Source: Halapricum desulfuricans
GTDB taxonomy: Archaea; Halobacteriota; Halobacteria; Halobacteriales; Haloarculaceae
Assembly: GCF_017094465.1 (NCBI RefSeq)
Contig: NZ_CP064792.1
Span: 62,001-126,000, forward strand
DNA length: 64,000 nucleotides
Reading direction: 5' to 3'
Positions 12,509-43,835 of this stretch are shown piece by piece (position 1 is the stretch's first letter; each line of letters starts with the position of its first letter). The translations under genes and the position numbers were made by a program. Below the pieces are notes generated by a model. That model ran no database searches, had not been told where the DNA came from, and was given only the letters and a program-made list of their open reading frames with translations.

Positions 12509-12533
12509 TCACTACACACAAACATCCTGAGGT

Positions 12534-24399: not shown

Positions 24400-24592
24400 T
24401 AACTCAGAAATCGCCTCTTGCAAGATACGCTCCCCGCATCAGGCACGGGTATAGAGTACTTCATCACGCCTGACTCGTCTACGGAATCATACATTTTCGG
24501 CTTCGAACTGCGCCAGATAGACCTGTAGCGACAGAGGGCCCGGAACAACACTACCAACTACTTTTTTGTCACCACGCGCAGATTCACCGACA

Positions 24593-25840
24593 ATGAGCAG
24601 TTCATCTGGCGAATATACCGAAGACGATGCAAAGGAAGATCTTAACGTTCTCAAAGAAGTTCCCAACAAGGTAGTTGACGCAATCGACAACGCAACAGAC
24701 GAAGGTGTCCTTGATTTCCTCATCAGGGAGCAACAACTCGATACCGTCCACGATGGGGAGCGTGGAATCGGGCAAGTACGACGAGCGGTCCTCAAGTCCT
24801 CTGTCGCCTCAAAAGACCTCAAGCGGTTAGTCATAACTCGCAACGACAATACACCCCGGGATGTCCTCGTCCCGGATGACGTGTATCGGAATGCGAAGAC
24901 AGCCCTCAAAGCTGGCAAACCTGTCGTTCTTTACGGTCCAACTGGTACGGGGAAAACCACGTTCGCGAAGCAACTCGCCCTAGAAGAGTCAATCGGTTAT
25001 TCACTCAACACCGCGACACCGTCTTGGACAGCGAAGGATATCATCGGTGGAATCGGGCCGAAACTTAGCGGTCACCGACTCAACTACCAGACTGAATTGG
25101 GCTGCGTTTCGGAGGCGATCAAGCGGTCAAAAGACTTCGCGATCGATTACACCGTGATCCTCGACGAGATCACGCGTGCTGACATCTCCAAAATCTTCGG
25201 TCCTCTGTACACCGCCATCGAGAACCCACAGCAGGAACTCATCGAAACAGATGACGGCGAGCCGATCACCCTCAACGACGATGTGAATCTCATCTGTACG
25301 ATGAACATGTCCGATCGAACGGTGAACGAGCTGGACAATGCAATCACTCGTCGCTTCGCTATGATCGAGGTGGATGAATATAGTGACGAGAGTCGTCGGG
25401 AGCTCTTCGAGAAATTCATCGATGACCATATCGAGCAAGTGAGCGATGGCGGCTCGCCCGTGTTCGATGAATCGGACCTTCTCGAATTATTCGAGATAGA
25501 CTACAAAGGGATCAATGAAGGCAACGACCAGACATCACAGGGCCCGATAATGCGATTCGGACCGATGCACTACGAGGACATCGCTCGCTTCTTGGGTGAG
25601 GCTACAAGCGACCCAGATCTCTATCTCGACAACCCAGGGGAAGCCGTTGGTCAGGCGTTCCGAACGTACATCGTCCCACGGTTGCTTAATTCAGCTGCCT
25701 TCCCCCAGATCGAGCGGATTGAGAACCACTACAGAGCGCTCAACGACCAGTTCGAAGAATACAATCTCAAACCGGCTGCCGATCTAGCGAAGCGGGAACT
25801 CGAGTCCGAGCAGCGACAGATGGGATCCTATGAGCAGTAG
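24593..25840 (+). CDS. mcrB: McrB-like AAA+ ATPase/GTPase
   Basis: 415 residues from the ATG at 24593. A TTG nine codons upstream is in frame but weaker. Walker A is G115-P-T-G-T-G-K-T122. The McrB-type Walker B V-I-L-D-E-I-T-R-A-D-I-S-K-I-F-G and the sensor motif M-N-M-S-D-R-T-V-N-E-L-D...R-R-F are both close to the McrB consensus. The N-terminal 90 residues would be the DNA-recognition part and have no familiar domain. It overlaps the McrC gene by 11 bases. McrBC complexes translocate on and cut modified DNA. Confidence 0.8.
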   Translation: MSSSSGEYTEDDAKEDLNVLKEVPNKVVDAIDNATDEGVLDFLIREQQLDTVHDGERGIGQVRRAVLKSSVASKDLKRLVITRNDNTPRDVLVPDDVYRNAKTALKAGKPVVLYGPTGTGKTTFAKQLALEESIGYSLNTATPSWTAKDIIGGIGPKLSGHRLNYQTELGCVSEAIKRSKDFAIDYTVILDEITRADISKIFGPLYTAIENPQQELIETDDGEPITLNDDVNLICTMNMSDRTVNELDNAITRRFAMIEVDEYSDESRRELFEKFIDDHIEQVSDGGSPVFDESDLLELFEIDYKGINEGNDQTSQGPIMRFGPMHYEDIARFLGEATSDPDLYLDNPGEAVGQAFRTYIVPRLLNSAAFPQIERIENHYRALNDQFEEYNLKPAADLAKRELESEQRQMGSYEQ

Positions 25841-27614: not shown

Positions 27615-27998
27615 TCAGAAGGGGGCAACTAACCAGTCGCCTTCCTCTTTCCGCTCAATCTGCGGACCGAATATTTGCTGCAAGGAGTAGAGTTCACCGT
27701 CATACCGCAAGTCGTAGGTCTTCCCTTGACGATGAAACGATCCTTCCACCACGAACTGGACTGTCGGGCTCTGATACTCGAGATCGTTTGCACGTCGATC
27801 CATTGTCTGAGCTAGCTTTTCTGCCAAGTCACTGTCTTCAAACGCTTTCTCCAGACCAACCACGCTCACTTTCTCTGGAACATCGTCGTTGTCCAATCGC
27901 TGGATATACTCCTCAACAGGCATCTGATGCTCGAACGTTTCGTATTCACCTTTGACGATGATATTGTATCGACCGGGGATCTGCCCAGGACTAGCCAT
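27615..27998 (-). CDS. Small hypothetical protein
   Basis: 127 acidic residues, converging on the mcrC gene with a 30-base gap. Mixed beta and helix: N-terminal strands (RYNIIVKGEYETFEH), a helix (LAEKLAQTMDRRAND) and C-terminal strands (TYDLRYDGELYSLQQIF). No membrane segment or catalytic motif. Family not recognised. Confidence 0.6.
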   Translation of the reverse strand: MASPGQIPGRYNIIVKGEYETFEHQMPVEEYIQRLDNDDVPEKVSVVGLEKAFEDSDLAEKLAQTMDRRANDLEYQSPTVQFVVEGSFHRQGKTYDLRYDGELYSLQQIFGPQIERKEEGDWLVAPF

Positions 27999-28229: not shown

Positions 28230-29039
28230 CTATACTTGAGAGAGTTTGGTAGCGAGTTCTTCGTATCCTTCCTCCCGTGCGTATCGAACAATAGGCTGTA
28301 CTGACTGGTCGTATGGCATTGGTTCGCCACCGCCCATATAGCCTTCAAACCAGCAATTAATGCGAGTCCGGACGGTTTCTGCACGTCGTTGCTCAATTGG
28401 TTCTGTCTCAACCCTATCCGAGGAATTAATCATACTATGGTATGCTGATCCCCAATGATCATTGAATGCCTCCTTGGTGACCGGTGCAGAGGGAGTGACT
28501 TCGGTACAGTGGCGTGGGTGTTCAATTTCGTATGCTAAATGACTCGCACAGAGGTCCGCAAGGAGCGAACTCGGATAATAAAGCTCAGACTGAATGCAAG
28601 TCGCAGTCGGAGGGCAAGTATCCGAGATACCGGTGATTGCCCGCCCAAATCGCTCAGCTTTGTCTTCGTCTCCGTCGAGAATAACGAGTGCATCCGTGAG
28701 ACCCAGCTCTTTCACGAGAACGGCCGACTGGACTGCTTCGACCCTCTCCCGATCGGAACCATCGTTTCCCAAATGGGTCGTCGCCGCCAGGAAGTGTTCA
28801 TTTGACTCGATTGCGATCTCGAAGAGATCTCGGCTTTCTTCGTACTCGATGTCGTGCGATTTGTCTCGGAACGGGTAGAACGAATAGTCCTCAGCAGCGG
28901 TATAGATATTATCCAGAATATCGAGTTCGTCAGTACGATCAGCAGTAACGGCGACTGTCACTGTGAGGCCATCGATAGTGCTCGCATCGATCGCTACTGA
29001 TCGTTCGTATATCGTCTCTCCGGCACGAAAGGGACGCAC
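28230..29039 (-). CDS. Hypothetical protein, RNase H-like fold possible
   Basis: 269 residues. An early strand with Asp (SVAIDASTID), a central L-V-I-L-D-G-D-E-D, and a later helix Y-Y-P-S-S-L-L-A-D-L-C-A-S-H-L-A-Y-E resemble the order of acidic residues in RNase H-fold proteins such as the DUF3800 group, which end with a similar L-x-x-A-D-L helix. This is a loose pattern match only. It lies between the McrBC genes and the DUF1156 methyltransferase, all within the defence island. Confidence 0.6.
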   Translation of the reverse strand: MRPFRAGETIYERSVAIDASTIDGLTVTVAVTADRTDELDILDNIYTAAEDYSFYPFRDKSHDIEYEESRDLFEIAIESNEHFLAATTHLGNDGSDRERVEAVQSAVLVKELGLTDALVILDGDEDKAERFGRAITGISDTCPPTATCIQSELYYPSSLLADLCASHLAYEIEHPRHCTEVTPSAPVTKEAFNDHWGSAYHSMINSSDRVETEPIEQRRAETVRTRINCWFEGYMGGGEPMPYDQSVQPIVRYAREEGYEELATKLSQV

Positions 29040-29154: not shown

Positions 29155-31824
29155 TTAGTAGCTCGTGATGTCCCGATCGCCGAGCACTCGTGTGTAAGTA
29201 TCGTCGCCGGTTACATCGGCGAGCCGACCGGCGAGCTCACGCAGGTCGTCATCGACGCCCCACTTCTCGACGTAGTTCTGGACGGACTGGCCCTTCTCGT
29301 AGCGGTAGCGGAGGAACTGGAGTTTGTCGAGGTTCGAGAGATGGTCGCCGCCGTCGCCGTTGGCGCGCTCCTGGATGTACGCCTGGCGCTTCTCGTTGTC
29401 CCAGGTGCCGAGTTCGAAGCCGTCGTCCTGGTTGTATAGGCGCATCTCCTTGAGGTCCTCCGGCGTGGCGTTGGTCCCCCTGCAGAGCTTATTGACGTCG
29501 TCGAAGGACGGACTCGGCGTGTCCAGTAGGTCGATGAACACGTCCTCGACGCCGATATCGCTGGCCTCCTGGATAATGCCGTAGATCTCTTGGACGACTT
29601 CCTTTGCGTCCATGATCTCGCCGTCGCGCTGGACCTTCCCGTGGTGTTTGGAATACTCGCGGAAGCACGCACCCATCTCCATCACGCCGATATCGCCGCG
29701 GGAGAGCTCGCGGTTCTCTTCGAGCTGTTTTCGGGTCCGGCGGGCCGTGCGGTAGATGTCGCGACGAAGGGAGTTCCACGATGCTGCCTCTGTGTCGTCA
29801 ATGGGACGGGCAACGATAGCTATGTCAAAAGAGACTGCTTCACCGCCTATGAATTTGTTAATGTCCGCAGTAAGTGGATAGGTGGCCGTCACTTCGAAGC
29901 CAGCAGTACATAACGATCCTAGTAACTCTCCCCAGGATTCAGAGTCACTATGGTGATATGTGAAGGTAAGCACACCGTCTTCTTTGAGTGATCGGTGAAT
30001 CGTTTCGAACGCTTGGCCTATTTCATGTTCGAAATCTTCAGTAGTTTTACCAAGATACGGATTCGTGACGATCGATTCGGCTCTGGGCGTTTTTTCGGCT
30101 TGGAACCCCTCGTAGTGGTCTTTGAGTAGGATTTTTTGCCAGACGTAGAAGAAGTCGGAAATCTCAGAATACATTACGTTATCGTAATATGGCGGATCTG
30201 TGATTACCGCATCAAATTCATTTTCAGCGTCTAATTGCCTTGCGTCCCCTAATGACAGAGTTGCGTTCGCTTCGATTGGTGGGAATCCTTCCGCTTCGTT
30301 ATTCTCACCGTCAACGACATAGCGCTCTGACGGTGAATTTGCATATTCTACACCACTCAGTACTCTCTCCCAAACAGTGGTGAACGGACCGGAACCGAAC
30401 TTCGTCCCCCAGACATTGTTTTCTACAGGAGACATAGTCGGCACGAAAGAATTTGTTTTGAATGAATGGTCTGCTTTATTGTATCCGTTATTGTATGTCA
30501 CGAAGGTATTATTATACCTAATAGAATCAGAGAAAGCTAGAAGCAGATACTCTCGAGCATTCTTATCTGACACTCCTTCGATAGCCTTCAGCAGCTTTGA
30601 TAGAGAAAGAAGCTGGCGCTTAGTAAACAGATCACACCAATGGTCGTATCCGTGTTCGAAAACGTCGTTTCCATTTACTGATGAAGATGCCGTAACTGCT
30701 CCTTTTGGGATTTCTTCATTCGGCACATATTCATGAAGATGGTCACTTTCCTCCCACTCTTGCTTAGCTTGACGATACAGTTCTTTGTCTTCCTTCTCTG
30801 CCTCCTTGTACCCTTTTTGATCGGCCTTTGACTCACCAGCGTCATCACAATGCTCGCAGTAGTACTCCAGAGCGTAGAGCCGCAGATCGTACCCGCCCTG
30901 TTCCTGAATCGCGTCCGTTATCGCGTACTTCTGTCCACAGTCGGGACAGTTGTACTTCCCGCCTCGCGAGACGTTCCCCTCCTTCGGAACGAAGCCGTGT
31001 CCACAGTCGTTACAGACACTCTCGGACTGCCAGTCGTCCACCAGCGTCACCGCGCCGCAGTCAGGACAGAGAACGTTGTACTTGTCGTCGTTCTCGTAGC
31101 GCCCCGCGGCGACGCGATAGTCCTTGAACAGGGGAACAGTGTGCCCACAGGAGACACAGTCCAACTCCTTCACCCAGAAGTTGTACATCACGTCCGCTTC
31201 GTGGTCGCCGTTCGGACAGGGTGTCTTGTAGTACTGCGTAATCTCGTCGGCGACATCCTCTTTCACTTGCTCGAAAGCTTCTTCAAGCTCTTCGACATCG
31301 GTCTGGCCCGCTTCGAGTTCTTTCTTCGTGACGAACCACGCGACAGGATTCAGGTCGTTGCCGACGACCTCAGCCCCGAAGCGTGAGGCTTCGACCAGCG
31401 ACGTACCGCCACCCATGAACGGGTCGAGAATCTTCTTGTCCTCGACGCGGACGTCCTTCGGGTAGAGTTCCCAGAGACTCTCTGGATCGCTCATGTCCAC
31501 GCGTTCGAGCAGCGACGCCACGTCGAGGTCGGACTCACCATCGGCGTCGTCGCCGTAGTCAGCGAGTGTACCGCCTTCGTGACCGGGCTCGAATACCTGC
31601 ACCTTCTCTGGATCGTCGAGTAGGGTGTAGAGAGAAATCGCGCGGAAGACACAGCCCAGACGGCGAGCCCACCATTTGTGCATCGTGTAGATCGGGCGGT
31701 AGTACATCTTCGCCCGTCCTTCCTTCTCAGCAATCTCGTTCACGCGCTCGATGGGGAAGCCACGCTCGATGGGGAGTTCAGTCCGCTCCTGCCGACCTTG
31801 TGAAGATCCGGATTGCTCAGACAT
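29155..31824 (-). CDS. DUF1156 DNA methyltransferase with zinc ribbons (COG1743)
   Basis: 889 residues from the ATG at 31822-31824. The frame continues 24 codons upstream without family sequence. The N-terminal DUF1156 signature (FPIERVNEIAEKEGR, YTMHKWWARR) is followed by methyltransferase motif I (I-L-D-P-F-M-G-G-G-T). Four Cys-rich knuckles (CPDCG, CNDCG, CPDCG, CEHC) form a zinc-ribbon insert. Motif IV is T-D-P-P-Y-Y-D-N-V, the DPPY of amino-methyltransferases (N6-adenine or N4-cytosine). COG1743 enzymes are often found with DUF499 ATPases and SNF2 helicases in defence islands, as here. Confidence 0.8.
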   Translation of the reverse strand: MSEQSGSSQGRQERTELPIERGFPIERVNEIAEKEGRAKMYYRPIYTMHKWWARRLGCVFRAISLYTLLDDPEKVQVFEPGHEGGTLADYGDDADGESDLDVASLLERVDMSDPESLWELYPKDVRVEDKKILDPFMGGGTSLVEASRFGAEVVGNDLNPVAWFVTKKELEAGQTDVEELEEAFEQVKEDVADEITQYYKTPCPNGDHEADVMYNFWVKELDCVSCGHTVPLFKDYRVAAGRYENDDKYNVLCPDCGAVTLVDDWQSESVCNDCGHGFVPKEGNVSRGGKYNCPDCGQKYAITDAIQEQGGYDLRLYALEYYCEHCDDAGESKADQKGYKEAEKEDKELYRQAKQEWEESDHLHEYVPNEEIPKGAVTASSSVNGNDVFEHGYDHWCDLFTKRQLLSLSKLLKAIEGVSDKNAREYLLLAFSDSIRYNNTFVTYNNGYNKADHSFKTNSFVPTMSPVENNVWGTKFGSGPFTTVWERVLSGVEYANSPSERYVVDGENNEAEGFPPIEANATLSLGDARQLDAENEFDAVITDPPYYDNVMYSEISDFFYVWQKILLKDHYEGFQAEKTPRAESIVTNPYLGKTTEDFEHEIGQAFETIHRSLKEDGVLTFTYHHSDSESWGELLGSLCTAGFEVTATYPLTADINKFIGGEAVSFDIAIVARPIDDTEAASWNSLRRDIYRTARRTRKQLEENRELSRGDIGVMEMGACFREYSKHHGKVQRDGEIMDAKEVVQEIYGIIQEASDIGVEDVFIDLLDTPSPSFDDVNKLCRGTNATPEDLKEMRLYNQDDGFELGTWDNEKRQAYIQERANGDGGDHLSNLDKLQFLRYRYEKGQSVQNYVEKWGVDDDLRELAGRLADVTGDDTYTRVLGDRDITSY

Positions 31825-32090
31825 GAGTACAGTATGTAGCATCGAATACAGGCGAGCCCAATAAGTGTGCGTTCTCTCAACTGGCTCGGATGGCAACTTC
31901 CATTGTGGATGAGATTATCCAAGAATAATCTACTATCGAGCTCTTGCATCCTTGTTGTCAAGATTCCTTGAGGGTGAGATTGGCTCAGGGCTGGCCGCTG
32001 GACAGTTCAGCCGTAGTACAGTGAAACCACCTCATAGAGTTCACGTCCCATTAGTTATTTACCAACGACAAGTGAATTGAATTCCACTTC

Positions 32091-34661
32091 ATGGTATCAT
32101 TTGATACGCCAGGCGGAGCGAAGTTCTACAAAGCGGACCTCCACATACATACACCCGGATCACACGATTACGACGATAAAGATGCTGCGCCAGATGATCT
32201 AGTCGCGGAGTTCGAAAATAAGAACCTCGACCTAGTGGCTGTCACCGACCACAATACCGGAGAGTATTTCGAACAGCTTCAAGAGGCGGCTGAGGGTTCA
32301 AGCGTCACAGTTCTGCCCGGGGTGGAAATTACAACGGGACAAAGCGGGGAACATCAAATACACATGACTGCAGTCTTCCCTCCCGAGGAAGCTGATGCCT
32401 TGTCTCCCTTCCTACATGATATCGGCATCAGAGGAGACCCGGAACATGCGATCGCTGAAGACACGATTCCGAAAATTTGTGACAAGACTCGCGATTATGG
32501 GGGCCTTCCGATATTAGCGCACATTGATGTGGAGGCTGGTGCTGACTTCGAGCTGACTGATCGAAACAATCCGACTCGGCAGAAGGTATTTGATCCCGAA
32601 AGAGTCGCTGCTCTGGAAGTCGTCGCAGAGGAAACGGCCGATGAATTCGAGGACTTCGCTCACATCCGCTCTTCTGACGCCCATTCCTTGGCAGATATCG
32701 GATCAAGATATACCTTTATCAAGATGGATTCACCCACCTTCGAGGGACTGCGTACAGCGTTTGCGGACCCAGAGTCCCGGCTCTCCCTGACTAGTGAACC
32801 AACCACGCATCCGAGTGTGGATGGTTTGCTCAGTCACAACGGGTTCCTTCAGGACAGACATCTCCAACTGAATAAGAATCTCAATTGTCTCATCGGGGGC
32901 AAAGGGACAGGAAAATCAACTGTCATCGAACAGATCCGTTACGCTCTGGACATCGATCCACGCTCGGATGATATCGAAGACGATTATAACGCTCTCATTG
33001 AGAACACCCTTCGACCCGATGGGATAGTGGAAGTGTTAGTCACTGCTACGAATAGTGATCAATACCGAATTAGACGTGAGTACGGCGAAGAACCGGAAAT
33101 CGAACGGATACCGAATACTGAGGATAGCGAGCCACAGGAAGTGGACCTCACGATTGAGCAGTTTAGAACGGAATTTTTCGATGTCGAGATCCACAGCCAG
33201 AGAGAACTAGTCGAGTTAGCTCGGAATGAGATTGATCAACTGGATCTACTCGACTCCTACTTCGACATCAATGACGAAATCGAGGCACGTGAGTCGGTAA
33301 AACAGGATATTAGAGCAAAAAACCGTGAGATCGCTGATCTCCGTGAGGAGGTAGACTCTCTTAAGGCCGAAAAAGAGAGGTTTGAAGCGTTGAAACAGCA
33401 GGTCGAGGTGATGGAGCAGAAGGGTGTAGAAGAATACGTCGAGGGCCAGGAGGAGTGGGAACAAGAACGAGCGGCGCTCAGTAACGTCATTGGAGATGTC
33501 GAAGCCTTAGAGGAAGAAGTCTCATCGCTCGCTCTCGCTGACCAGCTATCGCTCACCGAGGTTGACGATGGTCCGAACGAAGATTTGCTTCAATCTGTAA
33601 ATGAGACGATTTCAGAACTACAAGACGATATCGCTGAACATGAGAAGGAGCTAAAAAGAATTGTCAATGAGGGGCGTGGAGACATCGAAGATATTCGCGA
33701 GAAGTGGAACGAGGAGAATGAGAAGCGCGAGAAAGAGCACGAGTCTCTTGCAGACGAGATCGAAGAAGAGATTGGTGTCGATATTGAGGAATTCTTCGAT
33801 AAAAAGGCCGAATTAGAGGATTTGAGAGGTGTATCGGAAGACTTGGAAAATAAACGGGGACGCCTACGAGACGCCCGTGGTGAGAAAGCTGATCTTCTGG
33901 ACGACCTCCAAGCGGCCCGACAAAATCTCAGCCAGGCCAGAAAGGAAGGGATTGAAGAACTGAATGCTCAGTTAGGCAACGTCAGAGTGTCACTTCACAG
34001 CCAATCGAACCGGGATGAATACACGGACTGGGTCAACCACGTGCTGGAAGGTTCGGGTGTCTGGACTGAGCATAAAGAGCAAATCACTGAAACCATCGAT
34101 CCGCCAGAATTAGCCGAGATTGTTCGTAATAATGATACCGAAACTCTCTGTGAACTCGCCGATGTCACCCCGACGACTGCTGAGAATTTCGTCACTCATG
34201 ACGACCTCGTTGAGCAGCTGACTAAGTTAGAGCTTTACGAGATTCACGATCGGCCGGTCATCGAACTCAATGATGGCGGTTGGAAAGAACTCAATGAGAT
34301 GTCCGATGGTCAGCAATGCACAGCCCTTCTTTCCATCGCGATGATTGAGCGTGAAGTTCCGTTAATCATAGACCAACCGGAAGATATGCTCGACAATAAA
34401 TTCATCTTCACTGATGTGGTGGATATTCTCCGTTCGATCAAGCAGGACCGACAAGTGGTCGCAGCGACGCATAACGCGAATATCCCCATCATAGGCGATG
34501 CTGAGCAGATAGTCGTAATGAGATCTAATGGACGTGCTGGTTTCTATCGGGATTGTGGTTCCATCGACGACGACGAAATCAAAGCACTAGCACAAGATAT
34601 CCTTGAAGGCGGAGAAACGGCTTTCAAAAGACGGAGAGAGATGTATCATCGGGTTGTGTAA
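32091..34661 (+). CDS. TrlF-like PHP phosphoesterase fused to SMC-type ATPase
   Basis: 856 residues. Residues 10-235 are a PHP domain with its metal ligands: D-L-H-I-H, T-D-H-N, G-V-E-I, A-H-I-D and S-S-D-A-H. An ABC/SMC-type ATPase follows: Walker A G-G-K-G-T-G-K-S-T near 269-277, a coiled coil of about 400 residues, signature N-E-M-S-D-G-Q-Q near 736, and Walker B L-I-I-D-Q-P-E-D. This is the architecture of the family named TrlF. A TATA-like TTATTTAC about 30-40 bases upstream suggests its own promoter. Role inferred: DNA-sensing nuclease in defence. Confidence 0.8.
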   Translation: MVSFDTPGGAKFYKADLHIHTPGSHDYDDKDAAPDDLVAEFENKNLDLVAVTDHNTGEYFEQLQEAAEGSSVTVLPGVEITTGQSGEHQIHMTAVFPPEEADALSPFLHDIGIRGDPEHAIAEDTIPKICDKTRDYGGLPILAHIDVEAGADFELTDRNNPTRQKVFDPERVAALEVVAEETADEFEDFAHIRSSDAHSLADIGSRYTFIKMDSPTFEGLRTAFADPESRLSLTSEPTTHPSVDGLLSHNGFLQDRHLQLNKNLNCLIGGKGTGKSTVIEQIRYALDIDPRSDDIEDDYNALIENTLRPDGIVEVLVTATNSDQYRIRREYGEEPEIERIPNTEDSEPQEVDLTIEQFRTEFFDVEIHSQRELVELARNEIDQLDLLDSYFDINDEIEARESVKQDIRAKNREIADLREEVDSLKAEKERFEALKQQVEVMEQKGVEEYVEGQEEWEQERAALSNVIGDVEALEEEVSSLALADQLSLTEVDDGPNEDLLQSVNETISELQDDIAEHEKELKRIVNEGRGDIEDIREKWNEENEKREKEHESLADEIEEEIGVDIEEFFDKKAELEDLRGVSEDLENKRGRLRDARGEKADLLDDLQAARQNLSQARKEGIEELNAQLGNVRVSLHSQSNRDEYTDWVNHVLEGSGVWTEHKEQITETIDPPELAEIVRNNDTETLCELADVTPTTAENFVTHDDLVEQLTKLELYEIHDRPVIELNDGGWKELNEMSDGQQCTALLSIAMIEREVPLIIDQPEDMLDNKFIFTDVVDILRSIKQDRQVVAATHNANIPIIGDAEQIVVMRSNGRAGFYRDCGSIDDDEIKALAQDILEGGETAFKRRREMYHRVV

Positions 34662-34710
34662 ATAAAACACTACTTTTGGATTCAACGTCAAGTCTGTCAC
34701 AGGCAAACCG

Positions 34711-34720
34711 CTTATATGCC
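34711..34720 (+). promoter_or_regulatory. TATA box of the GmrSD-like gene
   Basis: CTTATATGCC lies about 30 bases upstream of the ATG at 34745, consistent with a leaderless or nearly leaderless transcript. Confidence 0.45.
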
Positions 34721-34744
34721 AGTCAGGTAAACGTTTGAGCATCG

Positions 34745-36577
34745 ATGAAAGCGGACACGCTCGATCTGAAGGACATCTTTCGGAAGGATACGAGGTACGT
34801 CGTACCGAGGTTTCAGCGCCCCTACGTTTGGAACGAGGAGGAACACTGGCAGCTCCTCTGGGAGGACCTCCGGCTCGTCGTCGACGAGCTGATGACCCGC
34901 CGGGAGGAGGCAGAGACACAGATAGAGCGCGACGACGCCCAACTCGAAACGTCGCCACATTTCCTGGGTGCGATCGTTCTCGATCAGCAATCGACACCCA
35001 CCCAGAAGTTAGAGACCCGGGAAATCATCGATGGCCAACAGCGACTCATCACGCTACAGGTGCTCCTCTCTGCCGCACGTGCAGTATCGGTGGATCTCGA
35101 TGACTCCGGATCTGCCTCGGTCTTCGAGAAGCTGATGTTCAACGATAGGGACCTGATTCGGGAGGACACGGACCGACTCAAGGTCTGGCCGATCGAAGCG
35201 GACCAGGACGCATTCATTAATGTGATGTCCCTCTCCGATCCCGACTCCGACGTGTCCGAACTCGATGGCGACGAGATACTCCACGAGTGTTTCCGGTATT
35301 TCCGCACCCGGATCAAGGAGTGGATCGAGAGCGGCGAACAGCCAGCAAACGAGCGACTTGACGCTCTGGTGACCACGATGTGGACGCTGATCCGCGTCGT
35401 CGTCATCGATCTCGAAGACAACGACGACGCGCAAGTTATCTTCGAGACGCTGAACGCCCGCGGAACTCCACTGCTCGCCGCCGATCTGATCAAGAACTAC
35501 CTGTTCCGTGAGGCGGCCATCGAACAGACCGATCCCGGGGAGTTGCACGACACGTACTGGGCTCAGTTCGACGAGGACGAGTGGCGAGAGGACATCTCGC
35601 AGGGTCGTCTGGAACGCCCGAAAATAGACGTATTTATTATGCACTGGCTCACGATGAAGATGCGCCAGCAGGTCCGGGCCAAGAAGCTCTTCCCGGCTTT
35701 TCGCAAGTACCTCGATCGGACCGACCACACCACCGAGGAAGTCGTTCGGGATATCGACCACTACGCGTCGATCTATCAGCAGATCTCCGAATCGGACACA
35801 GAGTCGCGTGAGGGAATCTTTTTCCACCGTCTAGACGTTCTCGATACGACGACACCGTTTCCGGTTCTCCTCTGGATGTTCGGTCAGGACGACATCCCGG
35901 ACTCCCAGCGAGTGAAAGCAATCGAAGCGATCGAAAGCTGGTTGATGCGTCGCATGTTGTGCCGTCTGACGACAAAGAACTACAACAACATATTCATCGA
36001 GCTGTTGGAAGTGCTCGAGCAAACCGACTCTGAAGAGGTCGGGGACACCGTCGTCGGGTACTTCCAGAGCAAGGAGGGTGAGAGCGACTACTGGCCCGAA
36101 GACGACGAGGTCAGCGAATCGATGGTCGAACTACAGTACTGGGCACGGATCAATCAGCGACGGCTGAAGATGGTGTTCGCTGCGATCGAGCGAAATCTCC
36201 GGGACACTGGATACAGCGAGACGCTGGAGATCACGCAGGATCTGGAAATCGAGCATCTTCTCCCACAGGAGTGGTCACATCACTGGTCGCTGCCCGGCGA
36301 ACGGGCAGCGGAGGTTGAGCGAATGGAGCGAGACGAAATCAAGAACACGATCGGTAATCTGACGGTCCTGACTGACAAACTCAATCCCTCGATTTCGAAC
36401 GCAGCATGGGATGACAAGCGTGACTCGATCCAGGAGTACACGGTACTCCGGGTGAATCAACACCTCGTCACGAACTGGCCGGAGGAGTGGAATGAGGAGA
36501 CAATCGCCGAGCGCGGAGAGTGGCTTTCCGAGCAGGCGATCGAAGTCTGGCCCGGCCCGAGCGCATCACACTGGTAA
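34745..36577 (+). CDS. GmrSD-type DUF262/DUF1524 restriction enzyme
   Basis: 610 residues, a single-chain GmrS-GmrD form. The N-terminal DUF262 domain has V-P-R-F-Q-R-P-Y-V-W and the nucleotide-hydrolysis motif I-D96-G-Q-Q-R100-L. The C-terminal DUF1524 is an HNH-type nuclease with I-E-H-L-L-P-Q-E-W and K-N-T-I-G-N-L-T-V-L-T followed by N-P-S-I-S-N. The family includes type IV enzymes that cut glucosylated or otherwise modified phage DNA. It lies between the TrlF-like gene and the convergent DUF499 gene. Confidence 0.85.
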   Translation: MKADTLDLKDIFRKDTRYVVPRFQRPYVWNEEEHWQLLWEDLRLVVDELMTRREEAETQIERDDAQLETSPHFLGAIVLDQQSTPTQKLETREIIDGQQRLITLQVLLSAARAVSVDLDDSGSASVFEKLMFNDRDLIREDTDRLKVWPIEADQDAFINVMSLSDPDSDVSELDGDEILHECFRYFRTRIKEWIESGEQPANERLDALVTTMWTLIRVVVIDLEDNDDAQVIFETLNARGTPLLAADLIKNYLFREAAIEQTDPGELHDTYWAQFDEDEWREDISQGRLERPKIDVFIMHWLTMKMRQQVRAKKLFPAFRKYLDRTDHTTEEVVRDIDHYASIYQQISESDTESREGIFFHRLDVLDTTTPFPVLLWMFGQDDIPDSQRVKAIEAIESWLMRRMLCRLTTKNYNNIFIELLEVLEQTDSEEVGDTVVGYFQSKEGESDYWPEDDEVSESMVELQYWARINQRRLKMVFAAIERNLRDTGYSETLEITQDLEIEHLLPQEWSHHWSLPGERAAEVERMERDEIKNTIGNLTVLTDKLNPSISNAAWDDKRDSIQEYTVLRVNQHLVTNWPEEWNEETIAERGEWLSEQAIEVWPGPSASHW

Positions 36578-36602
36578 GCACCAAACCGCCAGTTCGTAGC
36601 GC

Positions 36603-39600
36603 TCACTCCGTCTGGAAGCTAATCTCGACCTTCACACTTGACGCTTCGTCGGGCATCCGCTCGAACAGATCCTGCACCTTCGTATAGTCCTGCTCGGACA
36701 CCAGCGTCAGGCTCACTTGTGTCCGTTCGATGTCAGCAGTCCCCTGCAACGCGCCCGGGACGCCCTCACGGTCGGGCAGCATGAACGTGACGTCGCCGTA
36801 CTCGACAGTCCCGGTCTGGTGATTATCGCGCCACTTCGTCCGGAGAGCGGCAATGTCGTCGCCCTTGTACTCGAAGCGCCACGTCTCGGCCTCTGGATCG
36901 GCCCGCCGGAACGGATATCCTGGGACCCAGTCGGACGCTTTGTCCGAGCCGGTCGTGTTGACGACGTACTCCGGTTGCTCGTCCTTGCCGATGTTCTCCA
37001 GCAGGTACGTCCGAACCATGTACTCCGAAATACTGCTGTCGAAGCGCTCGGCGACCTTGTTCACGGTGAATTGGTCCTCGGCATCCAGGTCGTCGATGTA
37101 CTCCAGAATCTGCTCACCGATCCGATCCGGAACGGTCGGCACGACCTTGACCGTCGTCGGGTCGCGATCGCCCAGCGAATCGAGGTAGCGACCACCGGCT
37201 TCGAGAAGGTAGTCGTCTACGAGGAACTCGTTGACGGCCTCGCGAGCTGCGGTTTCGGTTTCGTCCGGTGGCAGGAACACCGTTTCGTCGGCGCGAATTT
37301 CGCCGATAATCGTGTCGAGGTTCGCGTATCCGTCCTCGCTGATCTTCGCCTCAATCTGATCGACGATGTACGACGCGCCAACCGTCGTTGCGCTGCCGAC
37401 GTCACGGAGCGTCGCGTCAGACTTCGGCTTGTCGAGAATCTCGTTCCCACGAACGATGACGTACTGATCCTCTTGGCTCAGACGGCCGATCGCCCGCATC
37501 ACGACGTCGTGGCTGTCACCGTCGATCCAGACCTCCCCATCTTCGACGAGATCCAGCTCGAAGTCGCCAATGTCGATGGCCGTCGTCCCGCTGCCGAAGC
37601 GCTGTCGAAGCTCCTGCTCGACGTCATCGACACCCCAGACCTTCACGTCGTCCTGATGGACCAGAACGGTGTCCAGAGAACTTCCGGAGAGGTCATCGCG
37701 GAACCCGCCAGTGTCTCTGGCGAGGACTGGTTTGTCATCGAGCGCCTCGACAGTCGCGTTCAGCACGTCGTTGGCACTCCCCGGGATGGGAAGCTCCGGA
37801 TCGCGCAGGAACTGCTCGTAGATATCTTCGATAGACGCTTCGCCACGCCGATCGAGCAGATCCTCAGCGATCGACCAGATGTGGCCCTGGATGTCGAACG
37901 GGTCGGCCGCAGCAGAGTCGGCGATATTCGACGCATCGAGTTCTGCCTCGTCCAGGACGAACACGTCGAGATCCATCGGGGCCGCGAGGTCGAACTCGTT
38001 GAGCAGGTCGTCACCGTCGAGGACTTCACCGTAGAGGAGCTGAATCTCTTCCCGGAGTTCGTCCTCTTCCTGGTCTTTCATTCCCTGGATCGACGCCCGT
38101 ATCTCATCATCGAGGGATTCGTCGGCGAGGACCTGGCGTGCCCCTTCGATGTAGCGAGCCTTGTCGATGTAGCGAGTCCCGGATTCGATTGCCTTGTCGC
38201 CCGATGGCTGGACGAACACGAGGGTGTTTCGCCACTCGCGCCCACGGCCGTCATTCGTGATTACCTGCTTGACTTCTTCCTGCGTCCACTGATCATCCTT
38301 GACGACAACCTTGATCTCGCGGTTGTCTGGAATATCTTGGATGTCGTTCGTTCTGAATCCGACAGGGTGTGCATTAGAGCCGAAGATGTCAGTGATGAAA
38401 TCTGCAATCTCCGCCTTCGCAGACGTTTCCGAGACGTCAACGGCTGCGTTTCGGATGAGCGCGTTCGGGTTCTGTCGATCGCGGATCGCGTACTTGCCGT
38501 TGAGTTTGTGGAGATGCCAAGCGACGCCGTGCAACCGTTCGAGGTTGAGAACGACGTCGGAGACGAGGTCGCCGGTCCGGTACGCCCCCATGACGATTTC
38601 AGAGACGTTTGCTCCTTCGCCCTCGCTGGGCTTGAGCGAGTAGAGAAGGATCGTATTCAGGATTCGGCGACCGTGCGGAACCTCATCGGTATCAATCCGG
38701 TTCTGTATGTCTCCAGTCGCAGCGTTTAGGCGCTCGTAGTTGATCTTCGCCAGTTCGTCTTCGAACTCGATGGCGTCGATGTCCCCGTGCGTGATCAGAT
38801 CGGTCTGATCTCGCATCTCGAGCAGGACCTTCGAGAAGAGGTAGATCATCCCGCGCGTGTTCTGGTTACCCTCGTCAGCGTAGTAACGCGTCTCGAGGGC
38901 ATCCATCAGCACGGGGTGGAACGGGTAGAGGTCGTGCATGTCCGACAGCAGGTCGTCGGGCAGATCGACGTGGTCGGACTGGTCGTAAGCGTCGAAGTAT
39001 TCGTTGACGATCTCCCGAGCAACACTTTCGTTGACGGAATCGATCAGGCGGTGGCGCAAGACTTCGCGCTTGTCCACCTGGTTGTTCATGTTGACTTCGA
39101 CTGCCTGCTCGCGATTCAGAATATCGTGAACCTCGGAACCCTCACGGAGGACAGAGACGATGGTGTAGAGCTCCAGATCGGAGAGAGCCGTTGATTCGAG
39201 GAGAGCCTGAAGGAAGGCCTTGTTCGCACTCTTGCGGTCGCCCTGAAGCGTGTCGAACCAGTCCTCGAGTTCGTCCACGAAGAACGCGACCGTGTCGTCG
39301 CCGACGGCCTCTTTGATCGTCTGCATGTCGGGATAGCCGCCCGATTCGTACGTCCCGGGGTCGTAGTCTAGCGCCTCGAAGAACGGCTCCCAGAGGTACT
39401 CGTACTGTTCGTTCTGCATCGCGACCGTGATCGGGATCGCGGAGTCCGGAAGCGCGGCGTCGAAGCCCTCGACGGAGTCGCTGGCCCACTCACCGGCTGC
39501 TGCCGGATCGTCGAAACAGTGGTAAAGCGCGACCATCTGGTGAGATTTCCCACTTCCGTAGGGCCCGTAGAGGATATGGGTGCCACGAGGGTCGTCTCCG

Positions 39601-39812
39601 GTCAGCGAATCACGCAGAATAGTCAGCGCTTCCCGAAGCCCCTGCGTCATCAGCGTTCGCTCGAAGAAGAGCTCGGCGTCGGACTCGAATTCACCGTCGT
39701 CTTCGACGTTGTAGAGTTTTACCTGCCCGTCTATCTGTCCTTCCTCTCGTAGTTCACGACTCAGCGTCACCGTATCCGAGAGAGTGGTGGACAGCGGTTC
39801 TGTTTCTGCCAT
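36603..39812 (-). CDS. DUF499 family ATPase (COG1483)
   Basis: 1069 residues from the ATG at 39810-39812. The frame extends 6 codons further. Walker A is G83-P-Y-G-S-G-K-S90, and the acidic strand A-F-F-V-D-E-L-E-D-W near 200 serves as Walker B. The remaining 800 residues follow the DUF499 pattern with winged-helix-like segments (EILEYIDDLDAEDQFTVNKV). The C-terminal 100 residues are beta-rich. The gene diverges from the SNF2 helicase across a 150-base promoter region. DUF499 and DUF1156 genes commonly occur together in predicted restriction-like systems, where the ATPase probably drives DNA translocation. Confidence 0.8.
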   Translation of the reverse strand: MAETEPLSTTLSDTVTLSRELREEGQIDGQVKLYNVEDDGEFESDAELFFERTLMTQGLREALTILRDSLTGDDPRGTHILYGPYGSGKSHQMVALYHCFDDPAAAGEWASDSVEGFDAALPDSAIPITVAMQNEQYEYLWEPFFEALDYDPGTYESGGYPDMQTIKEAVGDDTVAFFVDELEDWFDTLQGDRKSANKAFLQALLESTALSDLELYTIVSVLREGSEVHDILNREQAVEVNMNNQVDKREVLRHRLIDSVNESVAREIVNEYFDAYDQSDHVDLPDDLLSDMHDLYPFHPVLMDALETRYYADEGNQNTRGMIYLFSKVLLEMRDQTDLITHGDIDAIEFEDELAKINYERLNAATGDIQNRIDTDEVPHGRRILNTILLYSLKPSEGEGANVSEIVMGAYRTGDLVSDVVLNLERLHGVAWHLHKLNGKYAIRDRQNPNALIRNAAVDVSETSAKAEIADFITDIFGSNAHPVGFRTNDIQDIPDNREIKVVVKDDQWTQEEVKQVITNDGRGREWRNTLVFVQPSGDKAIESGTRYIDKARYIEGARQVLADESLDDEIRASIQGMKDQEEDELREEIQLLYGEVLDGDDLLNEFDLAAPMDLDVFVLDEAELDASNIADSAAADPFDIQGHIWSIAEDLLDRRGEASIEDIYEQFLRDPELPIPGSANDVLNATVEALDDKPVLARDTGGFRDDLSGSSLDTVLVHQDDVKVWGVDDVEQELRQRFGSGTTAIDIGDFELDLVEDGEVWIDGDSHDVVMRAIGRLSQEDQYVIVRGNEILDKPKSDATLRDVGSATTVGASYIVDQIEAKISEDGYANLDTIIGEIRADETVFLPPDETETAAREAVNEFLVDDYLLEAGGRYLDSLGDRDPTTVKVVPTVPDRIGEQILEYIDDLDAEDQFTVNKVAERFDSSISEYMVRTYLLENIGKDEQPEYVVNTTGSDKASDWVPGYPFRRADPEAETWRFEYKGDDIAALRTKWRDNHQTGTVEYGDVTFMLPDREGVPGALQGTADIERTQVSLTLVSEQDYTKVQDLFERMPDEASSVKVEISFQTE

Positions 39813-39964
39813 CTGTTGGTATCTACACACACCTCAGCCCGAGTCAATAAGAACTATGGTCATCCTATCACTTTGAAAAATGGCTGACATACGGCTGATC
39901 ATCTATATCTCCCTACTCCAAAGCGTCGCAAAATCTATCTTCCCGCCCCCGATGCTACTGTGAT

Positions 39965-41719
39965 ATGGGGAGCTACGACCTCGTGGACATCGAGGTCACG
40001 CACGAATCTGCGGACGATCTTCTCGCATCGCTGTCTGAGGGCCAAAATCCCGAGGATCACGTCCGGACTGTCCAGGCCGTTCGTCTCCAAGCGGGTCAGC
40101 CGGACTCGGAACTCCGCTCGCTCAAAGAGCTCGACGAAAACTCGGTGAAGTTGCTCGAACATCAAGTCGATGCTGCGTATCGGGCGCTGTTCGAGATGGA
40201 CGGGAAGGCTCTCCTCACTGATGAGGTCGGACTCGGGAAGACGATCGAGGTCGGGATGATCCTCAAGGAGATGCACTTCAGGCAGACTGACGACTCCGTA
40301 CTCATCCTGACGCCGGCCCAGCTAGCCAAGCAGTGGCAGGCAGAGATGCGCGAGAAGTTCGGTCTCGAATTCGTCTGTAACTACGACGATGAGTTCTCTG
40401 GGTTTGACCAGCACGACTACATCATCGCAAGCATCGACACGGCCAAGAGCGACAGGCACAGGCAGACAGTGCTCAACCGAGACTGGGACGTCCTCGTTCT
40501 CGACGAAGCCCACTACGTCAAAAACGAAGACACAGATCGCTACGACCTGATCGACAAACTCACCTACAACTACGCGTTCTTCCTGACAGCGACGCCAATC
40601 CAGAACGAACTCACGGATCTCTACAACGTTGTTTCATTGCTCCGACCCGGCCTTTTCGGAACTCGCGACGTCTTTCATCACTACTTCGTGAACAGCAGTC
40701 AGGAGACACTGGTCAATCGAGAGGAACTCCAGGACCGGCTGAATAAAGTCATGATCCGCAACCGACGAGCGGACACTGATATTGACTTCACTGAGAGGGT
40801 TATCGACACCCGAAAGTTCGATCCGAGTCCTGCCGAGCGAGAACTCTACCAGGCAGTCTCGGATTACGTCAAGGGAGCATACAGCCAGGACCAAGGGCAG
40901 AAACTCGTACTGATGCTTCTCCAGAAGGAGGTGGTCAGCAGTCCTGCCGCACTCAAAGAGACGATCGAGAAACGACTATACGAGCAAAACGAGCTCACTC
41001 ACGCGGATGAACTGGAGACGATTCTGGATCTCATCGATAATATCGACACTGTGACCAAGCAAGAACGACTGCTCGATATCGTCGAGGAAGCCCGTGAAAA
41101 CGTCGAGATGGGACGAGTAATCGTGTTCACGCAATTCAGAGCGACCCAACGCGAAGTCCTCGATAGACTGGCCGAGGAAGGATACACTGTCCATTCGTTC
41201 CACGGTGGACACTCCAGTGAGGAGAAAGAGCAGATCGTCGAGAATTTCGAAAAAGAGGGTGGTGTCCTCGTCTCGACGGACGCGATGAGTGAGGGCCGCA
41301 ACCTCCAGTTTGCCAATATCATGGTGAACTACGATCTCCCCTGGAACCCGATGCGCGTCGAGCAGCGTATTGGACGCATTCACCGTATCGGTCAGAAACG
41401 GCGAGTGTACATCTTCAACATGGCGCTGCGGGACACCATCGAAGAGTATGTACTGGATAAATTGTACCACAAGATCGATCTCTTCCAACAGACCGTCGGT
41501 GAACTGAGTTCAATATTGAGCCGGCTGGAGGAGTCGGGAACGAGTTTCGAGGACGAAATCTTCGAGCGACTGGTCAACGCCGATTCGGAAGTCGATCTCG
41601 AAAACGACTTTGACGACATGGCTATCGACCTTCAGGAACAGCGAGAGTTAGCGGACAAACTCGAAGAGTTCAACGACGGCGTTTTCGAAGGATTCGATCT
41701 GGGGGCGAGCGATGACTGA
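39965..41719 (+). CDS. SNF2-family helicase
   Basis: 584 residues with all SF2/SNF2 motifs: T-D86-E-V-G-L-G-K-T93 (I), T-P-A-Q-L-A-K-Q-W (Ia), V-L-D-E-A-H near 178 (II), F-L-T-A-T-P-I-Q-N (III), I-V-F-T-Q-F-R-A-T (IV), S-T-D-A-M-S-E-G-R-N-L (V) and Q-R-I-G-R-I-H-R-I-G-Q (VI). It is compact and RapA/DrmD-like in layout. The last residues overlap the ATG of the coiled-coil zinc gene by 8 bases. It probably moves along DNA for the DUF1156/DUF499 system. Confidence 0.85.
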   Translation: MGSYDLVDIEVTHESADDLLASLSEGQNPEDHVRTVQAVRLQAGQPDSELRSLKELDENSVKLLEHQVDAAYRALFEMDGKALLTDEVGLGKTIEVGMILKEMHFRQTDDSVLILTPAQLAKQWQAEMREKFGLEFVCNYDDEFSGFDQHDYIIASIDTAKSDRHRQTVLNRDWDVLVLDEAHYVKNEDTDRYDLIDKLTYNYAFFLTATPIQNELTDLYNVVSLLRPGLFGTRDVFHHYFVNSSQETLVNREELQDRLNKVMIRNRRADTDIDFTERVIDTRKFDPSPAERELYQAVSDYVKGAYSQDQGQKLVLMLLQKEVVSSPAALKETIEKRLYEQNELTHADELETILDLIDNIDTVTKQERLLDIVEEARENVEMGRVIVFTQFRATQREVLDRLAEEGYTVHSFHGGHSSEEKEQIVENFEKEGGVLVSTDAMSEGRNLQFANIMVNYDLPWNPMRVEQRIGRIHRIGQKRRVYIFNMALRDTIEEYVLDKLYHKIDLFQQTVGELSSILSRLEESGTSFEDEIFERLVNADSEVDLENDFDDMAIDLQEQRELADKLEEFNDGVFEGFDLGASDD

Positions 41720-42869
41720 CGCCTCAGTTGCGATCACACAATCCGCTGTAGAGCGGTTTGCCGAAGTGTACCTACCTTCGGTCGGCTGCTCAATCGAAAA
41801 ACAAGGTGACAACTGGAGGGTAACACCCGACGAAGACGCTGAGACGGAACTGATCACCGAGACTGTGTCTATCGTCATTGGTGATGACGCCGATGCTGAC
41901 AATGACTTAGTACGAGCACTCCACCCGGAGAGTTCGTTCTTTCAGGAGCTCTTGACTGAAGCGAGTGAACGGAGTCCCGTCGGAAAAGTCTCTGTGGATA
42001 CATCGAGAACCAGCGTTGAACCACCTAGCTGGATCGAAAACGACACAGTAGAAGTCACTGAGACGAATTTCACACCATTTTACGATCGGACCGCGGTCGT
42101 GATCCTGTTTCAGGTGAGTATCGAGACGGTCAGCGAGTATCAAACGGAACTGCTTCGCGCGGCTGCGATCGACCTGCGGTCAGAAGAGCCCCTCGCAAAA
42201 CTGGAAGAGACGTTCCTGGAGCAGACGTCCCTCGAGAAAGATTCAATCAAAACTGGTCGAACCGACATCGAGAGGTGTGATGTCGAACCACTTGTTCGGG
42301 ATGCCGGTGAGATCCTTGTGGATCGCATCCAACCACGGATAGACGAAATACATCAGGAAGCATCCCGAGCCGCGGATTCAGAGGTCGAGGAATACCGCCA
42401 GATGCAGGAACAACGAATGGAAGAGTTGGAAGGGAAGCATACGACGCTTTCGTCGAAGGTTGACGAACTGAACGTAGCCATCGAACAGAGTGCCCAATCT
42501 GAGCGGATGGAATTACTCAAGGAACGGAAAGAGGTCAAATCCGCGTACAAGGACATCGAAGAAGAATTAGCTGATTTACGCGAAGCTCGAGAGCGGGGCT
42601 TTCCTGAACGACAACGGGAAATCAGGAGCCGACATGCAATCGATGTCAGGGTGAAACCCCTCACTCTGACTCAAGTAGAGTACGAACGGGGTGAGGTTAC
42701 TTTCGAACTTACCACAGGAGATGAATCCCAATCAGTCACCATTGGATATGGAAGCGGTGTCGGTACGACCGAAAGCATCGTGTGTAGTAACTGCGGTCAA
42801 AACCTCTGCGAAGAAAACCCGATCTCCGCGATCAAATGCGGGGTTCAGTGTTCTCATTGCGGGGACTAA
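41712..42869 (+). CDS. Coiled-coil zinc-ribbon partner of the SNF2 helicase
   Basis: 385 residues. The N-terminal 130 residues are alpha/beta. Residues 200-310 form a charged coiled coil (EYRQMQEQRMEELEGKH, LKERKEVKSAYKDIEEEL). The C-terminus has a Cys cluster, C-S-N-C-G-Q-N-L-C ... C-G-V-Q-C-S-H-C-G, consistent with a zinc ribbon. It overlaps the helicase by 8 bases (ATGACTGA arrangement), so it is very likely a dedicated partner. The family is not recognised. Confidence 0.7.
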   Translation: MTDASVAITQSAVERFAEVYLPSVGCSIEKQGDNWRVTPDEDAETELITETVSIVIGDDADADNDLVRALHPESSFFQELLTEASERSPVGKVSVDTSRTSVEPPSWIENDTVEVTETNFTPFYDRTAVVILFQVSIETVSEYQTELLRAAAIDLRSEEPLAKLEETFLEQTSLEKDSIKTGRTDIERCDVEPLVRDAGEILVDRIQPRIDEIHQEASRAADSEVEEYRQMQEQRMEELEGKHTTLSSKVDELNVAIEQSAQSERMELLKERKEVKSAYKDIEEELADLREARERGFPERQREIRSRHAIDVRVKPLTLTQVEYERGEVTFELTTGDESQSVTIGYGSGVGTTESIVCSNCGQNLCEENPISAIKCGVQCSHCGD

Positions 42870-42915
42870 GGGATTAGCGTTCATTTCCAGAGTTCAGTCG
42901 ATACGAATCGATAGC

Positions 42916-43790
42916 CGTCAAAACAGAGCAATAGCGACAGTGTCTGGATCGAATTACTGATCCCTATAGGTGATATCGACGACCCACCAGAAGCAGATGA
43001 ACTCTTCCATGAGTCCACGTACGGCAACACGATACAGCACCGCTCGTTCAGCGACACCCAGACCAAAGTCTACGAGCAGCCCACAAAGACCCAGGCAGCA
43101 GGGATTCCGGTCCTCATTCCAACGTTCCCTTCGATCTGGCTCAGGAAATCCTCCAACTCTTTCGCGAATGCGGTGACGATCTTCGTGGGCCTGTCGATGG
43201 CGAGCCTCGATCGTCTACGATGGAGAGATCACGACTTCTCGTGTGTAAAGAAGACGATATCCCTCGCTGTACGACTCAAAAAGGGCGTGTTCGCGGCCGG
43301 CACGTTGCATGTCGCGAGCGTGCTGGCCAGTGGGTGCGACGGCGATCGCCAGCTTGAGGTCGGACCGATGACCTCGTCGAGAAGGCACAGCTTGGAGCCG
43401 ATGACCGCTACAGCGGACCCAGGCGACGACCAGGTACAGATCGACTCGCCGAACGGAAGGTCATCTACGACACAGATAATCGGTTCCGGACGAATATCAA
43501 CGTCGTCCTCCGAACGTGAGAGCAAGGGCAGCGTCATCCTTTTCCAGAGCTACTTTGTCGAGCAAGCAGCTGAACGAACGCTCAACCTGTCGAGACCACA
43601 CGCGAGAAGAGAGTGGGGAACCCAAAGGGAAGGGACTGGGATGGGCGCCTAGATTCCGAAACGTCGACCGATCAGGTAGCTTTCGTCGGGCCCCCGGTGA
43701 TGTGTGGCCACCGGATGATGAAATTCCGGAGTGGACTGATAGAGGTTCTCAGGATATTCGAGATAGTGTCACTACCAATTTACTAACTCT
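42916..43790 (+). pseudogene. Degraded coding region, several frames
   Basis: No intact gene occupies 42870-43835. Coding-like fragments follow each other in different frames: IELLIPIGDIDDPPEADELF and TYGNTIQHRSFSDTQTKVYE (about 42916-43104), FDLAQEILQLFRECGDDL (about 43130-43185), then IVYDGEITTSRV (about 43210-43245). Frameshifts and stops separate them, so they look like one decayed gene downstream of the SNF2 operon. The family is not recognised. The 3' half (43250-43790) holds no fragment I can defend. Confidence 0.45.
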
Positions 43791-43835
43791 TCAAGATAGC
43801 TCTGCACAAGCATTCGTATTCTATCAGACCCACAC

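What the first reader, a model, noticed from the sequence alone, without database searches (positions are those of the whole stretch)
29155..42869. Composite system: DUF1156, TrlF, GmrSD, DUF499, SNF2 and a zinc coil
A methyltransferase, two large ATPases, an SNF2 helicase with a dedicated zinc partner and two nuclease families lie in one 13.7-kb block. COG1743-COG1483-SNF2 sets are known defence neighbours, but the inserted TrlF-like PHP ATPase and single-chain GmrSD would let one island restrict both unmodified and modified DNA. No separate PLD or REase gene is intact; the degraded region at 42.9-43.8 kb may have been it.
Basis: partly seen in the sequence, partly recalled or inferred. Interest (0 to 1): 0.7.

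Follow-up and report, generated by a model that had tools for sequence, protein, structure and literature searches.

The report
Haloarchaeal BREX-like cassette with McrBC

Summary
All six genes are present and look intact. The finding's boundaries and its reading need changing. In about 60 haloarchaeal loci the conserved unit is McrB, McrC, a 127-aa protein (p128), DUF1156 methyltransferase, DUF499 ATPase, SNF2 helicase and zinc-coil. McrBC and p128 (window 24.6-28.0 kb) belong to it and were missed; p128 and McrC co-occur in 31 of 195 genomes (P=2e-31).

The zinc-coil is the separately encoded C-terminal half of a RapA/BrxHII-type helicase. p128 is homologous to the small protein of PglZ-bearing Type-3 BREX-related (BR) loci, probably their inactive STAND. 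The cassette's DUF499 forms one clade near those Type-3 proteins, but PglZ is absent.

TrlF and GmrSD are cargo in the methyltransferase-DUF499 gap, where Type-3 loci carry PglZ. Close GmrSD homologues fill the same slot in six other cassettes and elsewhere in three genomes. The TrlF-like gene is in this slot only here; a 65% homologue lies inside a Type-2-like BR locus. Other cargo includes DitA, IetA, HNH, SoFic and FokI-like genes. The "degraded REase" resembles an MBL-fold hydrolase.

Most likely: a new BR subtype using McrBC as nuclease (mechanism inferred). New variant of a known kind.

The parts
24566..25840 (+). McrB-type AAA+ GTPase (core; real start probably near 24593)
   Evidence: Pfam AAA_5; same position and orientation in related cassettes, mostly 47-83% identity
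25830..27584 (+). McrC nuclease subunit, PD...DxK-like motif (core)
   Evidence: PF10117 8.6e-17; all hits of 52% identity or more lie in cassette genomes; LD[STA]KY in 46 of 46 distinct homologues
27615..27998 (-). p128, 127 aa, predicted inactive STAND/BrxF-like protein without Walker A (core)
   Evidence: 32 of 195 genomes, 31 with McrC; AF2 pLDDT 91.7; hhalign 98.4% / 7e-15 to the small protein of PglZ-bearing loci; no P-loop in 57 of 57
28230..29039 (-). slot-1 cargo gene of unknown function (269 aa)
   Evidence: 71-72% homologues between methyltransferase and p128 in L054, L055, L132; other genes or nothing elsewhere
29155..31896 (-). DUF1156 N6-adenine DNA methyltransferase (core; real start probably near 31824)
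   Evidence: PF06634, HmaB; DPPY and motif I; least conserved at about residues 360-560, putative target recognition domain
32091..34661 (+). slot-2 cargo: TrlF/Ppl-like PHP phosphoesterase + SMC-like ATPase
   Evidence: PF02811, AAA_21, PADLOC Ppl 3e-56; in this slot only here, homologues in 5 of 381 other genomes
34745..36577 (+). slot-2 cargo: single-chain GmrSD type IV-like endonuclease
   Evidence: PF03235 1e-36, PF07510 3e-22; 75-78% homologues in the same slot in six other cassettes
36603..39830 (-). DUF499 AAA+ ATPase (core; real start probably near 39812)
   Evidence: PF04465, HmaC; 85-89% identity in close cassettes; one clade, 100/100
39965..41719 (+). SNF2 helicase core, front half of a split RapA/BrxHII-type helicase (core)
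   Evidence: PF00176+PF00271; RapA is the best solved-structure match, 7e-41
41712..42869 (+). zinc-coil = back half of the split RapA-type helicase plus a C-terminal zinc ribbon (core; overlaps SNF2 by 8 bp)
   Evidence: AF2 pLDDT 85.5; RapA residues 704-968 align over 240 residues, Z 9.6, rmsd 7.7; 55 distinct homologues
42870..43835 (.). degraded stretch with an MBL-fold hydrolase-like fragment (about 42972-43233); not part of the system
   Evidence: 80% DNA identity over 262 bp to a Halorhabdus tiamatea plasmid gene

Best explanation
The locus is a haloarchaeal BREX-related (BR) restriction-modification-like cassette: McrB, McrC, p128, DUF1156 methyltransferase, DUF499 ATPase and a RapA/BrxHII-type helicase encoded in two overlapping genes. 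Shown here: anatomy, conservation, homology of p128 to the small protein of PglZ-bearing BR loci, the split helicase (structure-based), one DUF499 clade, and variable cargo in two slots. Inferred: the methyltransferase marks self DNA with N6-methyladenine; DUF499 with p128 and the methyltransferase scans for unmarked target sites; the SNF2/zinc-coil helicase remodels or translocates on unmarked DNA; McrBC, in place of the missing PglZ, cuts it. GmrSD and the TrlF-like protein are add-ons covering viruses that escape the core, GmrSD probably cutting modified DNA.
For: Strict co-occurrence: p128/McrC 31 shared genomes of 195, P=2e-31; McrC/zinc-coil 30, P=8e-30. Same order in named haloarchaea. 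All McrC hits of 52% identity or more are in cassette genomes; relatives outside are 37-41%. Haloarchaeal PglZ-bearing loci have the order DUF499-PglZ-methyltransferase-p128-like; profile match 98.4%, 7e-15. The DUF499 tree puts the cassette in one clade (100/100), apart from Type-2-like proteins. PglZ is missing from the own genome and from 15 other cassette genomes of 28, and is never in the cassette. SNF2's best solved match is RapA, 7e-41; the zinc-coil model matches RapA 704-968 over several domains, and the two proteins sum to 969 aa against RapA's 968. Active-site motifs conserved.
Against: No functional data. McrBC may be a linked but independent type IV layer. The RapA match is Z 9-9.6 with rmsd 7.7, and coiled coils give similar Z. 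p128's fold match is weak (Z 5.1 at most, all AAA+/RecA), so 'inactive STAND' rests on topology, position and homology to a protein that itself was not verified as the published iSTAND. Some tree joins involve long branches. Haloarchaeal PglZ-bearing loci show no clear SNF2 gene nearby, so the helicase may not share their history.
Confidence: 0.55

Rival explanations
1. McrBC is an independent type IV system that travels with the BR core and cuts virus DNA carrying foreign modifications, much as GmrSD-family BrxU complements BREX on pEFER (PMC8565348). The core itself blocks unmodified DNA without its own nuclease, or uses cargo nucleases.
For: McrBC homologues are classically modification-dependent (established knowledge); McrB/C are transcribed convergently to p128, as a separate unit; BREX plus type IV pairing is experimentally shown.
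Against: Close McrC homologues are never found without cassette genes among 195 genomes, while the true add-on GmrSD also occurs alone. No other nuclease is fused to the core or present in all cassettes.
Confidence: 0.27
2. One reading: TrlF, GmrSD, methyltransferase, DUF499 and SNF2 act together as one system restricting both unmodified and modified DNA.
For: GmrSD recurs in the same slot and orientation; a TrlF homologue sits inside another BR locus.
Against: Slot 2 is empty in 18 of 50 cassettes with an adjacent methyltransferase and holds unrelated genes in most others; the TrlF-like gene is in the slot of this cassette only; GmrSD is in about a quarter.
Confidence: 0.1
3. A passive defence island: neighbours accumulated by co-transfer, without functional links.
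For: Lies on a 180-kb replicon next to other defence-like genes.
Against: Order, orientation and co-occurrence of the seven core genes are conserved across many haloarchaeal families, far beyond chance.
Confidence: 0.05

Closest known systems
DUF499-centred BREX-Related (BR) systems, above all Type 3 (PMC12839542; also called Hma)
   Same: DUF1156 N6-methyltransferase, DUF499 ATPase, SNF2 helicase without fused nuclease, and a small p128 homologue probably equal to the published iSTAND
   Different: PglZ absent; McrBC present in its stead; helicase split into two genes with an added zinc ribbon; PglZ's position is a cargo slot. The paper's main text mentions neither McrB/McrC nor a split helicase; its supplements were not readable here
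RapA / BrxHII SNF2 helicases
   Same: SNF2 core, degenerate domain and alpha+beta domain with coiled-coil insert
   Different: encoded as two overlapping genes; N-terminal stretch before the helicase is only about 60 aa; extra 4-Cys cluster at the C-terminus
McrBC type IV restriction
   Same: AAA McrB and McrC with PD...DxK-like motif
   Different: tied to one BR core; short McrB N-terminus; specificity for modified DNA untested
BREX + BrxU (GmrSD) island of pEFER (PMC8565348)
   Same: a GmrSD enzyme placed with a BREX-family system
   Different: here GmrSD is inside the operon gap and exchangeable with other defence genes
Ppl / TrlF-like PHP-ATPases
   Same: N-terminal PHP domain plus SMC-like ATPase, PADLOC Ppl 3e-56
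   Different: embedded as cargo rather than alone

Membership tests
BR system (DUF499-centred) | DUF499 ATPase + DUF1156 N6-methyltransferase + SNF2 helicase together | tested here: met
Type-1 BR | PD-(D/E)XK nuclease fused C-terminally to the helicase (79% of published taxa), or another nuclease nearby | tested here: inconclusive
   No nuclease domain on SNF2 or zinc-coil by Pfam; the published definition tolerates separate nucleases and no Type-1 sequences were put in the tree
Type-2 BR | N-terminal HKD (PLD) nuclease on the helicase plus DUF3780 | tested here: not met
   SNF2 has about 60 aa before the helicase and no PLD hit; no DUF3780 among genes tested
Type-3 BR | standalone PglZ in the locus | tested here: not met
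   no PglZ in the own genome or in any cassette
Type-3 BR | iSTAND component | tested here: inconclusive
   p128 is homologous to the small protein of PglZ-bearing loci and lacks Walker A, but that protein was not itself matched to the published iSTAND alignment
Type-3 BR | helicase without nuclease, BrxHII-like architecture | tested here: met
   RapA/BrxHII-like halves in two genes; the N-terminal Tudor domain was not tested
BREX | BrxC and PglZ | tested here: not met
   DUF499 instead of BrxC (only a marginal BrxC hit), no PglZ
DISARM | DrmA/DrmB core | tested here: not met
   among the ten genes of 24.6-47 kb scanned, only the SNF2 gene hits DISARM models (DrmD, and weaker DrmA by its helicase domain); no DrmB
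McrBC type IV restriction | McrB AAA GTPase + McrC with nuclease motif | tested here: met
McrBC type IV restriction | cleaves only modified DNA | not testable with these tools
   needs biochemistry
GmrSD family | GmrSD_N (DGQQR) and GmrSD_C (HNH) domains | tested here: met
Ppl/TrlF-like | PHP domain followed by SMC-like ATPase | tested here: met

The most novel reading that the evidence does not exclude
A BREX-family machine in which McrBC, normally a reader of modified bases, has become the obligate nuclease acting on unmodified DNA, directed by the DUF499/p128/methyltransferase complex and a two-chain RapA-like helicase, with the vacated PglZ position serving as an exchange slot for auxiliary effectors.
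Probability: 0.4. Interest if true: 0.78.

Novelty: new variant of a known kind. Interest (0 to 1): 0.6.

Why it matters
Which protein cuts DNA in BREX-family systems is still debated. A subtype without PglZ and without a helicase-fused nuclease, strictly tied to McrBC, gives a natural substitution experiment: if McrBC does the cutting here, the BREX-family core is a targeting platform that accepts different nucleases. It also assigns likely roles to two proteins currently annotated as hypothetical or unnamed (p128 and the zinc-coil), and gives a slot in which new haloarchaeal defence genes can be sought.

Tried and rejected
(1) A remnant PLD/REase at 42.9-43.8 kb: protein searches found no long match, and blastn found only an MBL-fold hydrolase gene. 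(2) Solved-structure match for p128: no Foldseek hit under 0.001, VIA Z 5.1 at most, all AAA+/RecA-like; used only as weak support. (3) Foldseek alone on the zinc-coil: no hit under 0.001; RapA emerged only with VIA-align, among coiled-coil matches of similar Z but as the multi-domain one. (4) Sequence profile of the zinc-coil against PDB: coiled-coil noise only. (5) McrC against PDB by sequence: no match. (6) DUF499 in phage genomes: no match. (7) Papers pairing DUF499 with McrB: three papers hold both words; only one (PMC7641849) was opened, and the passages read there do not describe this pairing.

Full report
OBSERVATION. Catalytic motifs are readable in all five enzymes. The window is part of a 180,725-bp contig, probably a plasmid, in a 2.88-Mb genome.

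THE REAL UNIT IS LONGER. The methyltransferase, zinc-coil, p128 and McrC were searched in the same 195 genomes of the order. p128 occurs in 32, McrC-like genes in 34, zinc-coil in 31; p128 and McrC share 31 genomes (P=2e-31), McrC and zinc-coil 30 (P=8e-30). Gene maps of 40 fetched loci and 45 named haloarchaeal loci found by DUF499 give one arrangement: McrB-McrC, convergent to p128, then methyltransferase and DUF499 read leftwards, then SNF2 and zinc-coil read rightwards. McrBC and p128 (24.6-28.0 kb) are thus core, and were outside the finding. Rearranged forms exist, some with two to four methyltransferases per DUF499.

ZINC-COIL. AlphaFold from 31 homologues gives pLDDT 85.5. Among VIA-align matches, most cover only the coiled coil (about 217-309); E. 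coli RapA entries 8so8, 6bog and 8spg align from residue 1 to 326-327 with the RapA C-terminus (704-968 in the best; Z 8.7-9.6, 240-242 residues, rmsd 7.7). SNF2's best solved match by sequence is RapA (7e-41). SNF2 (584 aa) plus zinc-coil (385 aa) about equals RapA's length, and the genes overlap by 8 bp. This agrees with the domain layout published for BrxHII (degenerate REase-like domain, then an alpha+beta domain with a coiled-coil insert; PMC12839542). So the partner is the split-off back half of the helicase, with a zinc ribbon added. It evolves much faster than SNF2 (mean identity 57% against 89%), which is unexplained.

p128. AlphaFold pLDDT 91.7. Structure matches are weak but uniformly AAA+/RecA-like; no Walker A in 57 of 57 homologues; three strands follow one another before the last core strand, as described for BrxB/BrxF inactive STANDs. 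Ten haloarchaeal loci with the order DUF499-PglZ-methyltransferase-small protein carry a p128 homologue at the last position (hhalign 98.4%, 7e-15). Calling it the iSTAND is an inference.

RELATION TO BR SYSTEMS. These PglZ-bearing loci fit Type-3 BR systems (PMC12839542). In the DUF499 tree the cassette is one clade (100/100), separated with the Type-3-like proteins from Type-2-like ones (long branches limit the finer order). PglZ is absent from the own genome and from every cassette. McrB/McrC are not mentioned in the paper's main text.

CARGO. In 50 non-redundant loci with a co-directional methyltransferase next to DUF499, the gap is under 300 bp in 18 and at least 1 kb in 31. This gap, where PglZ sits in Type-3-like loci, holds: GmrSD; DitA (L041, L086); IetA+DUF6414 (L042); MTaX1-HNH nucleases (L047, L086, L087); a nucleotidyltransferase/HTH pair (L051, L120); SoFic (L053); FokI-like proteins (L058, L059, rearranged); a second McrB-like pair (L105, L111); transposase remains (L046). 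GmrSD-family genes lie inside 14 of 62 loci, plus one where the methyltransferase was out of view (L101/L127). Of nine genomes of 382 with a GmrSD at 75% identity or more, six have it in this slot and three elsewhere; Halobaculum saliterrae (L094) adds a seventh. At a rough background of 26 GmrSD genes in 195 genomes, three in cassettes have P about 2e-6 (assumes random placement, which defence islands violate). The TrlF-like gene has homologues in five of 381 other genomes: none in a cassette slot, one (65%) between methyltransferase and PLD-helicase of a Type-2-like BR locus (L134), one (45%) 8 kb from a cassette end (L137), two elsewhere, one fragmentary and not followed.

DEGRADED STRETCH. 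42,870-43,835 matches only an MBL-fold hydrolase gene, 80% over 262 bp.

MECHANISM. Shown: anatomy, conservation and homology. Inferred: self-marking by the methyltransferase, whose variable middle (residues about 360-560) fits a target recognition domain; scanning by DUF499/p128; remodelling by the split helicase; cutting by McrBC. The strongest argument for McrBC as effector is that close McrC relatives are never seen without cassette genes, unlike GmrSD. The main rival is that McrBC is a tightly linked type IV layer. Only genetics or biochemistry can decide.

VERDICT. Confirmed block, corrected boundaries, reinterpreted contents: a new variant of BREX-related systems with exchangeable cargo.

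Noticed in passing
L147-L151 (e.g. L147:6233-13249): A paralogous pair in five haloarchaeal genomes: SNF2 (589-607 aa) followed by a 675-1125 aa protein whose first ~390 aa are the zinc-coil domain and the rest a long array of tandem Cys/His zinc-knuckle-like repeats; with an Mrr-type REase gene and an opposing ResIII helicase in L147 and similar-sized neighbours in three others. Possible separate, undescribed defence system.
   Followed up: partly
L065, L067, L068, L071, L112, L113, L117, L125: Cassette versions with two to four DUF1156 methyltransferases for one DUF499/SNF2 set, suggesting several target specificities.
   Followed up: no
window 41712-42869 vs 39965-41719: Zinc-coil is far less conserved (57%) than the overlapping SNF2 gene (89%) across the same loci.
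   Followed up: no
L138-L144, L078-L080: Haloarchaeal PglZ-bearing BR loci have no clear SNF2 helicase gene within the fetched flanks, unlike the published Type-3 description.
   Followed up: no
window 43836-46274: Superfamily-1 helicase related to PADLOC MkoA next to the cassette.
   Followed up: no
window 7211-20710: Rad50-like ATPase plus metallophosphatase pair, then a PD-(D/E)XK protein and UvrD helicase-nuclease (AddAB-like) pair and another metallophosphatase.
   Followed up: no
window 5989-7005: HNH endonuclease gene, with a sub-threshold SWIM zinc-finger hit.
   Followed up: no
L119 McrB: Natronococcus pandeyae McrB is 83% identical to the window's while most others are near 65%, hinting at recombination of McrB between cassettes.
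   Followed up: no
L127:2915-12652 (Haloferax sulfurifontis contig): A 9.7-kb slot 2 that includes GmrSD and many short ORFs on one strand.
   Followed up: no
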